NCBI GenBank assembly: GCA_900169235.1
Contig: FWCC01000283.1
Location: 179,070 to 243,069, forward strand
Direction of reading: 5' to 3'
Length of the DNA: 64,000 nt
Source: Zarea fungicola
Lineage: Eukaryota > Ascomycota > Sordariomycetes > Hypocreales > Cordycipitaceae
In this document: positions 2,928 to 49,829 of the stretch, piece after piece
Layout: each line of letters opens with the position of its first letter
Numbering within the stretch: the stretch's first letter is position 1
Translations under genes and position numbers: made by a program
The notes under the pieces: model-generated
What the model saw: the letters and a program-made list of their open reading frames with translations, nothing else
The model's database searches: none
What the model was told of the DNA's origin: nothing

Positions 2928-4821
2928 GATTGCCTCGGCGGGGGAGGGGTTTCGACCCAGAGCTGGATTGCCCAAATACACGTTTCAGGTATTGGGTACC
3001 TAACTATGCGTTGGACGGAACACGTCGCAAGTAGTAGACGGGCCTTGGTCGTGTTGTATTTTATCTGCACAGTGCGTTGGCGACGGATTCCTCCAATTTC
3101 CAACGTCCTGCTGGGTGACGCCGATGAGCTGTAGATGTGCTCTGGTTGGTCGAATGCAGAGTCTCTGCTGCATCAAATGAGTACAAGATGGTATGCAGTT
3201 TGTGAGGAAAAGGAACTTTGTAAGCCTTGGGAGATGACGTTGGGTGGATGAAGGTCGACCGGCAGAGAGGCAGACGGACAGGGGGAGACTTTGGTAGTGA
3301 AGTCATACCAGGTACAGTAGCTGGCAGCCTTGGTGGGGGCCTTTGCAGTGACAAGGTTGGGAGTGCGGTGCGGATAAAGGCAGAACAAAGACGTCGATTT
3401 GAATTTTTGAGAAGTAGTTAAGTTACATGTAAATGATGAGAGGACCGTCTTTACTTTTCAACAGATCAGATGTGTTGCGTTGTTGTTGTGAGCTTCATGG
3501 ACTCAGTGTGCTACTTATCTGGCGACGTTTGCGACAGTGGCAAGACGTGAGATGCCAGCCAGTAGAGTCGTATTTTAATGCAATGACCAGATTAAAATTC
3601 ATTGAAATATATTTTCAGCCATATTCAATTTCTATTTGATTTGGACTTCTTTTTCTTTCTCATCAGACATCTTTCCTCGGTCCACCGTTGGTGACAATGT
3701 GAAGGCAGATTGTCTAGGCCATGTCAGTGGTGACGAGGACTGAATGAATTGCCCACCGGCGATGGGCAAGCGAACTGGAATTTGGAAAATTTCAGAATGG
3801 GATCTGAAGAGTAAAAGCCATTGTATTAAATGCAGTAAATTCCCGGTATTCTAATCCATTTACTCGGATGCCGCAGTGTTCCGTGTCTGAATCCCCGACA
3901 TGATTCACGACTCGGCCATTGGGCAGTAGGCAAGGTCGAATGTGGCAGCAACGCAGGCATGGACAGCCGTCTCAAATCACCACTTTACGGCTTCTTTTTA
4001 ATGGAATTTAGACTCGGTAGGAGTATGGTGGCGACATGATGCGCCTCAATGTGTACAGCAAAGTTTGATTATAGTGGCGGCGCCTTCAGATCACGAAACC
4101 CAAGTACAAAAGATGGCGGATCATGGAATAAAATCGTAGCCAGAAATACTATTCGCAATTGTTTGCATAAAGAAGACTAAATCCATAAAACATCAGACAT
4201 TCCTCAGATACCATCCCACACTGATCAACTAGGAAAGAGTCGCGACGGGACCTCTGCCCTGCCACACAACTACAACTACACTACCAGTCGTCTTCACTTT
4301 TCCCTTGAACGGACTCTCGGTGATTCGGCCATCTATGGTAACCAAACGCACAAAGTGAGAGCTGACATGCAAACGGTTCCGAGGCAAGCTGTGATTCGAG
4401 GTGCATACATGGAATGTGTAAAGCTATAAAGCCAGGTCCATCAGCGCTCTTTGGTTTATTTTATTTTCCACCTTACCTTTTGTTTCATCCACCTCTGAAA
4501 CATAGAGACAGCAATCTCTTGTGCTATCAGGTTTATTTTTTGGTGCGACAGGATTCGTCTGATCGTCTTTCTTGCCTCTTGTGTCTCTTTATTGGCCTTG
4601 TCTGTCTGCCAGCTGCGCAGGTTACACAGGGCCGTCTGCCGGTCCGTCTGCTCCTACTTACACCTGCGGACCGCTGACAGACTGGAATCCCCTCCTTGTC
4701 CTTGGCGCAAAAATTGCATAAAAAATACATTCGTTTCTTTTCTGCTTTTACTTTACTTCTTCTTCCTCTTTTTCCCTCTTTTTTCTTTTGCTCTTCTTCG
4801 ATTCTCAACTCGTCGTTCGAT
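2928..4821. other. Divergent intergenic region
   Basis: This 1.9-kb gap separates two divergently transcribed genes. No reading frame has coding character. A long pyrimidine-rich tract on the plus strand (about 4735-4800) sits just before the start of the LrgA/LrgB gene and is typical of a fungal core promoter or leader. I see no RNA gene or repeat here. Confidence 0.5.
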
Positions 4822-49342: not shown

Positions 49343-49692
49343 CTGGTAGGATCTCGAGGTTTCATGCAACCCAGCAGCGAGGTACTGAGCAAAAGAGAGG
49401 GCCGTCAGGAATACTGGAGGAAAGACGGTCTGCAGTTACATGTAAGGTACAAGCGATAACCAGAGACTAGATGCAATATAAGTTTAATATGTATCTAGCA
49501 CAATCCTTGAAAATTTTATTTGTCTCTGTTTGAAGTGTCAAAGAGTGCTCACAGTGAGGATGCTTTCTTATGGTAGACTGCTAAAAGAAATGAGAGAGAG
49601 AAAACATCAACAATGAAGAAACAAACAGAACAAAATCAATCGGGCAAAAAAGAAAAAAGAAAGAAGGTATGCTGTGAAACACAACATGTTAC
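49343..49692. terminator. 3' region of the ADH gene and Pol III terminator of the tRNA
   Basis: Downstream of the tRNA on the minus strand, T-runs (A-runs on the plus strand at 49645-49657) provide Pol III termination signals within 50 bases. The rest is the 3' flank of the dehydrogenase; no other gene is seen. Confidence 0.6.
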
Positions 49693-49829
49693 CTCCCCCA
49701 GGAAGGCTCGAACTTCCGACCTTTGGATTAACAGTCCCTGATGGGTGGATTAGTAATGTGCTACTTTGCATCCACTATGAGGATATGAATAAAAACTTAC
49801 AACGCTCTAGCCAACTGAGCCATGGGGGA
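49693..49829 (-). tRNA. tRNA-Asn (GTT) interrupted by a 63-nt GT..AG insert in the anticodon stem
   Basis: Removing 63 nt gives a 74-nt cloverleaf with perfect arms: acceptor TCCCCCA/TGGGGGA, D-stem GCTC/GAGC, anticodon stem TTGGA/TCCAA with loop CTGTTAA (anticodon GTT), and T-stem GGAAG/CTTCC with loop TTCGAGC. A-box (TGGCTCAGTTGG) and B-box (GTTCGAGCC) are intact. The insert splits the 5' strand of the anticodon stem after position 28. It begins GTAAGT, contains TACTAAT 12 nt before its 3' end, and ends CAG, so it reads as a spliceosomal intron. Canonical eukaryotic tRNA introns lie after position 37 and are removed by tRNA endonuclease; this one is not there. The exact boundary is ambiguous by one base. 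Confidence 0.85.

What the first reader, a model, noticed from the sequence alone, without database searches (positions are those of the whole stretch)
49693..49829. tRNA-Asn gene carrying a spliceosome-type intron inside the anticodon stem
Deleting 63 nt (boundary ambiguous by one base) restores a perfect tRNA-Asn(GTT) with intact A and B boxes. The deleted piece starts GTAAGT, has TACTAAT with its branch A 12 nt before the end, and ends CAG: a textbook fungal spliceosomal intron. It sits between positions 28 and 29, not the canonical 37/38 site of endonuclease-spliced tRNA introns. mRNA-type introns are known inside U6 snRNA genes of some fungi and are explained by reverse splicing; a nuclear tRNA equivalent would be new to me. 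Either a Pol III transcript is spliced by the spliceosome, the gene is made by Pol II, or it is a recently broken copy kept by chance.
Basis: partly seen in the sequence, partly recalled or inferred. Interest (0 to 1): 0.92.

Follow-up and report, generated by a model that had tools for sequence, protein, structure and literature searches.

The report
tRNA genes split by mRNA-type introns
In a relative of insect-infecting fungi, the five nuclear asparagine-tRNA genes that could be found, and two other tRNA genes, are interrupted by introns of the kind normally found in messenger RNAs, which suggests that the mRNA-splicing machine helps to make these tRNAs.

Summary
Window 49693-49829 (minus strand) is a tRNA-Asn(GTT) gene whose exons are separated by 63 nt with GTAAGT, TACTAAT (branch A 12 nt from the end) and CAG; joining the exons gives a complete tRNA. 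It is not a lone broken copy. All five nuclear tRNA-Asn genes found in this 43-Mb genome carry such an intron at the same site (28/29), and no intronless nuclear one was found. Intron bodies have drifted while exons and splice signals are intact; the two exon types differ by compensatory stem changes, one pair lying across the junction. Two more cases: a tRNA-Thr(CGT) gene split at 35/36, its exons 72/72 identical to an intronless paralogue, and a tRNA-Leu(UAA) gene split at 34/35 that also has an ordinary 17-nt intron at 37/38. All seven introns have GTAAGY, CTAAY with branch A exactly 12 nt from the end, and YAG; all seven genes have a nearby T-run. Best explanation: Pol III pre-tRNAs spliced by the spliceosome, in Leu together with the tRNA endonuclease. 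No RNA data or sister genomes were available, and the tRNA survey is incomplete. Ten paper searches listed no such report. Host: Cordycipitaceae.

The parts
49801..49829 (-). tRNA-Asn(GTT) exon 1 (positions 1-28, holds the A box)
   Evidence: ARAGORN on the joined exons; coordinates computed
49738..49800 (-). mRNA-type (U2-dependent, GT-AG) intron, 63 nt: GTAAGT ... TACTAAT ... TCAG, branch A 12 nt before the end
   Evidence: same kind of intron at the same site in the four other nuclear Asn genes found
49693..49737 (-). tRNA-Asn(GTT) exon 2 (position 29 to the discriminator G73; holds the whole anticodon loop CTGTTAA and the B box)
49646..49658 (-). two T6 runs downstream of the tRNA (the first begins 34 nt after the gene), likely Pol III terminator
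   Evidence: first T6 at offset 34. A T5+ run lies within 60 nt in 53 of 58 other tRNA genes read and in 8.2% of 4000 random 60-nt stretches of the window

Best explanation
This is a working nuclear tRNA-Asn(GTT) gene, one of a family in which all five copies found carry an mRNA-type intron at position 28/29. Pol III probably transcribes it from its internal A and B boxes and stops at the T-run (inferred). The transcript holds a complete set of U2-type splice signals of the same kind as the host's mRNA introns (seen in the sequence). The spliceosome removes the intron (inferred), the joined exons form the anticodon stem, and the product becomes tRNA-Asn. The same holds for one tRNA-Thr(CGT) gene (35/36) and one tRNA-Leu(UAA) gene (34/35). 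In Leu a second, ordinary 17-nt intron at 37/38 remains for the tRNA splicing endonuclease, so that precursor would need both machines (inferred). No intronless nuclear tRNA-Asn gene was found, so cytosolic reading of AAC/AAU codons would depend on the spliceosome. The likely origin is insertion of an excised mRNA intron by reverse splicing (inferred; no donor intron was found).
For: (1) 5 of 5 nuclear Asn genes found by DNA search hold the intron at the same site. (2) A strict pattern for an intronless gene, up to 3 mismatches, gave 0 places. A loose one gave 14 places (0 in the reversed control): 5 are the intron-bearing Asn genes, and the other 9 are not Asn by eye. (3) All seven introns: GTAAGT x6 or GTAAGC x1; CTAAC or CTAAT with branch A exactly 12 nt from the end; CAG x6 or TAG x1; 57-75 nt. 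(4) 11 putative mRNA introns in held sequence (open frame of at least 35 codons on both sides; donor, branch and YAG required by the search) are 59-89 nt, with branch A 10-15 nt from the end in 10 of 11. (5) Within each Asn type the mature parts are 99-100% identical, but the introns only 60-72%, no more than across tRNA families (53-71%). (6) The two Asn exon types differ at 12 of 74 sites, with both-side changes in four pairs; one, T-A to C-G at 28-42, has its two bases in different exons. (7) The joined Thr(CGT) exons occur letter for letter (72/72) in the intronless gene L019. (8) Removing the 58-nt Leu insert gives a pre-tRNA that ARAGORN calls Leu(TAA) with a 17-nt intron at 37-38; its fold has an anticodon-intron helix. 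(9) T5+ run within 60 nt downstream in 7 of 7, against 8-9% in controls. (10) Precedent: S. [quoted passage not shown]
Against: No RNA evidence: neither a spliced junction nor a lariat was seen. No sister genome was available (genome search holds no relatives; scans of viral and bacterial/archaeal contigs gave 0). An intronless Asn gene could lie in an assembly gap (456 contigs) or be too diverged for the patterns. Fold predictions show only partly open 5' splice sites (mean unpaired probability 0.53-0.67) and branch regions (0.25-0.74), so folding may compete with splicing; the mean T-stem probability in the unspliced RNAs is above 0.9 in only 2 of 7. Pol III transcripts lack the cap that normally helps splicing (recalled). 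The Thr gene has an intact intronless paralogue, so that copy could be a silent insertion. Some within-type intron pairs still score about 3 standard deviations above shuffles, so part of the signal likeness may be shared descent.
Confidence: 0.85

Rival explanations
1. The inserts are removed by the tRNA splicing endonuclease (TSEN) at unusual positions, as noncanonical introns are in archaea, nucleomorphs and Cyanidioschyzon.
For: Ordinary tRNA introns are common in this genome: ARAGORN flags one in 26 of the 58 other tRNA genes read. Noncanonical introns in eukaryotes are on record (passages of PMC4090602).
Against: TSEN needs no GTAAGY, CTAAY at -12 and YAG, yet all seven inserts have them. 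The sites differ (28/29, 34/35, 35/36), while human TSEN reads the mature body and an anticodon-intron stem (passages of PMC10539383). Single folds show no helix shared by the seven across the two borders (by eye; no BHB model was run).
Confidence: 0.06
2. The genes are made by Pol II as capped transcripts (perhaps as part of a longer RNA), spliced there, and then trimmed to tRNA.
For: The mRNA-type intron itself; the 5' flank of the window gene is shared with the upstream region of a divergent peptidase gene.
Against: Internal promoter boxes are intact, and a T5+ run lies within 60 nt downstream in 7 of 7 genes, as for the other tRNA genes read (53 of 58).
Confidence: 0.08
3. The interrupted genes are pseudogenes, and an intact tRNA-Asn gene exists but is missing from the assembly.
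For: The assembly has 456 contigs; the tRNA survey was limited; the interrupted Thr(CGT) copy has an intact twin.
Against: Five Asn genes on three contigs, exons matching within each type, compensatory stem changes, and splice signals kept while intron bodies diverged. No intronless nuclear Asn gene was found.
Confidence: 0.03

Closest known systems
mRNA-type intron of the U6 snRNA gene (Schizosaccharomyces pombe; other fungi recalled)
   Same: A U2-type intron in a short, Pol III-made noncoding RNA; origin explained by reverse splicing (passages of PMC10484740).
   Different: U6 is itself part of the spliceosome, so contact with free introns is expected. Here the hosts are three tRNA families with no known role in splicing, and for Asn every nuclear gene found is affected.
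mRNA-type introns in other noncoding RNA genes of fungi: U2 snRNA of Rhodotorula hasegawae, rDNA of ascomycetes and deuteromycetes
   Same: Spliceosomal introns in noncoding RNA genes (titles seen only in reference lists).
   Different: Those genes are made by Pol II or Pol I (recalled) and are not tRNAs.
Canonical nuclear tRNA introns removed by TSEN and Trl1
   Same: Introns in the anticodon arm of nuclear tRNA genes; the Leu(UAA) gene carries one of these as well.
   Different: Canonical introns sit at 37/38 (passages of PMC4090602) and need no GT-branch-AG signals. The seven introns here sit at 28/29, 34/35 or 35/36.
Noncanonical (bulge-helix-bulge) tRNA introns of archaea, nucleomorphs and Cyanidioschyzon merolae
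   Same: tRNA introns away from 37/38 (passages of PMC4090602).
   Different: The archaeal and C. merolae ones are read through an RNA structure by a splicing endonuclease. Here linear U2-type splice signals are conserved.

Membership tests
U2-type spliceosomal (mRNA-type) introns | 5' splice site of the host's mRNA type | tested here: met
   GTAAGT in 6 and GTAAGC in 1 of 7. Among 6 putative window introns found with a looser donor pattern, 4 have GTAAGY.
U2-type spliceosomal (mRNA-type) introns | Branch-site motif near the 3' end | tested here: met
   CTAAC or CTAAT with branch A 12 nt from the end in 7 of 7; 10-15 nt in 10 of 11 putative mRNA introns, 24 in the other.
U2-type spliceosomal (mRNA-type) introns | 3' splice site YAG and length near the host's range | tested here: met
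   CAG x6, TAG x1; 57-75 nt, against 59-89 nt for 11 putative mRNA introns (YAG was required). Three of the seven (57, 58 and 58 nt) are 1-2 nt below that small sample's range.
U2-type spliceosomal (mRNA-type) introns | Removed by the spliceosome through a lariat | not testable with these tools
   No RNA data held.
Canonical TSEN tRNA introns | Insertion at 37/38, one base 3' of the anticodon | tested here: not met
   28/29 (Asn x5), 34/35 (Leu), 35/36 (Thr); exon 2 of Asn holds the whole anticodon loop.
Canonical TSEN tRNA introns | Second intron of the Leu(UAA) gene: 37/38 position and anticodon-intron helix | tested here: met
   ARAGORN: 17-nt intron at 37-38 after the 58-nt insert is removed; the single fold shows the helix.
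BHB-type noncanonical tRNA introns | Bulge-helix-bulge at the exon-intron borders | tested here: inconclusive
   Single minimum-energy folds show no helix shared by the seven precursors across the borders (by eye); no BHB model was run.
mRNA-type intron in a Pol III gene (U6-like) | Host gene of Pol III type | tested here: met
   tRNA with internal boxes in the exons; T5+ run within 60 nt in 7 of 7. Polymerase occupancy is not testable here.
mRNA-type intron in a Pol III gene (U6-like) | Spliced mature RNA observed | not testable with these tools
   No RNA data held.

The most novel reading that the evidence does not exclude
In this fungus the entire cytosolic supply of tRNA-Asn, and of tRNA-Leu(UAA), is made only with the help of the spliceosome. 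Leu precursors pass through two unrelated splicing machines in order, spliceosome then TSEN. tRNA genes are a continuing target of intron gain by reverse splicing, as the Thr(CGT) gene and its identical empty-site paralogue suggest.
Probability: 0.55. Interest if true: 0.96.

Novelty: new variant of a known kind. Interest (0 to 1): 0.92.

Why it matters
tRNA splicing and mRNA splicing are treated as separate worlds with separate machines. If these genes work as read, translation of Asn codons in this lineage depends directly on the spliceosome. The Leu gene would give a single RNA that uses both machines. The Thr pair (same exons with and without the intron) is a clean site at which to study intron gain or loss. 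There is also a practical point: gene finders that look for tRNA introns only at 37/38 would miss or misname such genes, as happened here, so tRNA families reported as missing in other fungal genomes may be explained this way.

Tried and rejected
Considered and rejected: (a) a lone broken copy, ended by the five-gene family; (b) one long TSEN intron in the Leu gene, which ARAGORN calls Thr(TGT) with a 75-nt intron, whereas removing the spliceosome-type piece first gives Leu(TAA) in a body with a long variable arm; (c) a spreading repeat, since the intron bodies show little likeness and the Thr intron matched only itself in the genome (one first-look candidate), which also means that no donor intron was found.

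Led nowhere: scans of viral and bacterial/archaeal contigs (0 matches); the AGAGC pattern (85 places against 58 in the control; 64 were printed with letters, and among those I recognised by eye only the 3 Asn genes on C175; the window's own gene is among the 21 printed without letters); the Leu DNA search (itself only, one candidate). One search spent a protein search on an out-of-frame stretch. One search gave 41 places against 44 in the control; I recognised two as tRNA genes (Leu, Thr) by reading the exon letters. One search found 4 of the 5 Asn genes (control 0); the C323 gene was missed because its intron is one base longer than the pattern's gap allows. In one search my T-stem indices were wrong; one search gives the right pairs.

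Limits of the tRNA survey: RF00005 gave the same 63 matches at both thresholds, 14 of them on the mitochondrial contig. Of 353 B-box places (324 in the reversed control) 100 were listed; I scanned the 30 cut as loci and 22 more in 20 stretches. In all, 65 tRNA genes outside contig C218 were read. Nuclear Phe, Tyr, Trp, Pro, Ser(AGA) and other Leu genes were not seen, and I cannot say whether they are interrupted.

Statistical caution: the Fisher test on branch distance 12 (7/7 against 2/11, p = 0.002) treats the five Asn genes as independent, which they are not.

Full report
What is there. On the minus strand of the window, 49829-49693, lies a tRNA-Asn(GTT) gene in two pieces. Exon 1 (29 nt) ends in the anticodon stem after position 28. 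Exon 2 (45 nt) starts at position 29 and holds the whole anticodon loop and the T arm. Between them lie 63 nt that begin GTAAGT, hold TACTAAT with the branch A 12 nt from the end, and end TCAG. The joined exons give a 74-nt tRNA-Asn with complete stems. Unspliced, the gene is not found by Rfam, nor by ARAGORN in the tool's default setting or with introns off.

It is a family. A DNA search of the window's own genome (43.1 Mb, 456 contigs) with the 137-nt gene gave five places, each covering the query from end to end: this gene, one on contig C323, and three within 1.3 kb on C175, the third inverted. All five hold an intron at the same site. To look for an intronless gene I used two patterns with up to three mismatches. 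The strict one gave 0 places. The loose one gave 14 places, with 0 in its reversed control: the five Asn genes, with intron ends in place of exon 1, and nine that by eye are not Asn (seven with other anticodons, two 3' halves that resemble the Ile-like gene L058). The only other tRNA-Asn(GTT) seen is on contig C218, without intron; C218 is the mitochondrial contig (ORFs read by eye, rps3). So 5 of 5 nuclear Asn genes found carry the intron. An intact gene in an assembly gap, or one too diverged for the patterns, cannot be excluded.

Two more families. Reading other tRNA genes showed a tRNA-Leu gene on C98 (L063) with GTAAGC...AACTAAC...GCAG, 58 nt, between positions 34 and 35. As it stands, ARAGORN calls it Thr(TGT) with one long intron. 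After removal of the 58 nt it calls it Leu(TAA) with a 17-nt intron at 37-38, and the fold has the anticodon-intron helix expected of a tRNA-endonuclease substrate. A pattern of AGTGGT, GTAAG and CTAAY gave 41 places (44 in the control). Two of these I recognised as tRNA genes: the Leu gene, and a tRNA-Thr(CGT) gene on C172 (L140) with a 69-nt intron between positions 35 and 36. Its joined exons occur letter for letter, 72 of 72, in the intronless gene L019 on C170. In total 7 of the 65 tRNA genes read outside C218 carry such an intron: the 65 are 59 (which includes the Leu gene), five Asn and one Thr. The survey is not complete.

Why these are introns of the mRNA type. All seven start GTAAGT (6) or GTAAGC (1), have CTAAC or CTAAT with the branch A exactly 12 nt from the end, and end CAG (6) or TAG (1); they are 57-75 nt long. 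For comparison I took 11 putative mRNA introns from the held sequence, with an open frame of at least 35 codons on both sides; they are 59-89 nt long, with branch A 10-15 nt from the end in ten and 24 in one. Donor, branch and YAG were required by that search, so only length and branch distance are independent comparisons, and a few of the eleven may be false. The exact distance of 12 occurs in 7 of 7 tRNA introns and 2 of 11 mRNA introns (Fisher p = 0.002), but the five Asn genes are not independent. Dinucleotide shuffles reach the full signal set in 0, 0, 0, 3, 0, 0 and 0 of 20000 each.

Why they are likely to work. Within each Asn type the mature parts are identical or nearly so (0.99-1.00, where one gene carries an extra end base). 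The introns of the same genes are only 60-72% alike, no more than introns of different tRNA families in the same alignments (53-71%); inner-sequence scores within types are 0.9-3.0 standard deviations above shuffles, so some pairs may keep a trace of shared descent. Exons and splice signals are held while the rest drifts. The two Asn exon types differ at 12 of 74 sites; four stem pairs change on both sides, one in the acceptor stem, one in the T stem and two in the anticodon stem next to the intron. At pair 28-42 (T-A to C-G) the two bases lie in different exons, which is best explained by selection on the joined RNA. A T5 or longer run begins within 60 nt downstream in 7 of 7 genes. The same holds for 53 of 58 other tRNA genes (54 of 59 with the Leu gene), 8.2% of 4000 random 60-nt stretches of the window and 44 of 465 upstream stretches.

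Mechanism. My reading: Pol III transcription, spliceosomal removal of the mRNA-type intron, then end trimming; in Leu also cleavage by the tRNA endonuclease. That signals and products fit is seen in the sequence. That the spliceosome does it, that Pol III makes the RNA, and that in Leu the spliceosome acts first are inferred. All sites lie in the anticodon arm (28-36), where an insert leaves the rest of the tRNA able to fold (inferred). In single-sequence folds of the unspliced RNAs the acceptor stem is kept in all seven (mean probability 0.94-0.99), but the mean T-stem probability exceeds 0.9 in only two of seven, and splice sites are partly paired; this speaks against easy splicing of a folded precursor. 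Reverse splicing of an excised intron is the likely origin, as proposed for U6. The Thr intron matched only itself in the genome, so no donor was identified. The direction (gain in C172 or loss in C170) is not settled.

Host. The peptidase gene beside the tRNA is 74-76% identical to proteins of Cordyceps, Akanthomyces and Beauveria. The mitochondrial ribosomal protein S3 is 79-80% identical to entries named Lecanicillium saksenae, Akanthomyces lecanii and Cordyceps confragosa, and 95% to an unnamed protein. Akanthomyces lecanii is in Cordycipitaceae, Hypocreales.

What is known. Passages of PMC10484740 state that S. [quoted passage not shown] Reference lists seen name mRNA-type introns in a U2 gene and in fungal rDNA (titles only). 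Passages of the review PMC4090602 place eukaryotic tRNA introns mostly at 37/38, call noncanonical ones rare, and take short insertions in D or T arms mostly for pseudogenes; the stem 'spliceosom' has 0 occurrences in its main text. Passages of PMC10539383 describe how human TSEN reads the mature body and the anticodon-intron stem. Ten searches of the open-licence library listed no paper that, from title and start of abstract, reports spliceosomal introns in nuclear tRNA genes; three of them listed only part of what they held (15 of 45, 15 of 16, 7 of 11). I saw passages of three hits that looked nearest (PMC13130702, PMC11782384, PMC8393795), and the passages shown do not report it. Most subscription papers and preprints are outside that library, so novelty is likely but not proven.

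Verdict. It belongs with mRNA-type introns in noncoding RNA genes, and is a new variant of them because the hosts are tRNAs, one of them an essential family in which every nuclear gene found is affected.

Noticed in passing
L121, L138, L119, L120, L126, L131, L129 (contigs C97, C169, C129, C164, C105, C124, C117): Ordinary short introns (8-39 nt as placed by ARAGORN) also occur in tRNA-Gly(GCC), Glu(CTC), Ala(AGC), His(GTG) and, by eye, Cys(GCA) genes (ARAGORN calls the last Leu); ARAGORN flags an intron in 26 of the 58 tRNA genes other than the seven.
   Followed up: partly
L060 (C309:13985-14057): A tRNA-Thr(GGT) gene with a bacterial-looking body; GGT is not a usual eukaryotic Thr anticodon (recalled), so this may be organelle-derived, transferred or a contaminant.
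   Followed up: no
window 49667-49692 (minus strand) and L010 just after 1650: The type-1 Asn genes on C391 and C323 share TAACATGTTGTG right after the tRNA, in C323 followed by CACAACATG, so a hairpin may form in the trailer before the T-run.
   Followed up: no
L066 (C175:278000-287000), genes at 4768, 5061 and 5849 (inverted): Three type-2 Asn genes within 1.3 kb with identical exons but diverged introns; ARAGORN misnames the inverted one tRNA-Phe.
   Followed up: partly
all seven tRNA introns: Branch A is exactly 12 nt from the 3' end in 7 of 7, tighter than in the 11 putative mRNA introns examined; the cause is unknown.
   Followed up: partly
C112:136369-136403 and C187:954-988: 3' halves that look like tRNA-Ile with an intron, not in the RF00005 list, which shows that list is incomplete.
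   Followed up: no
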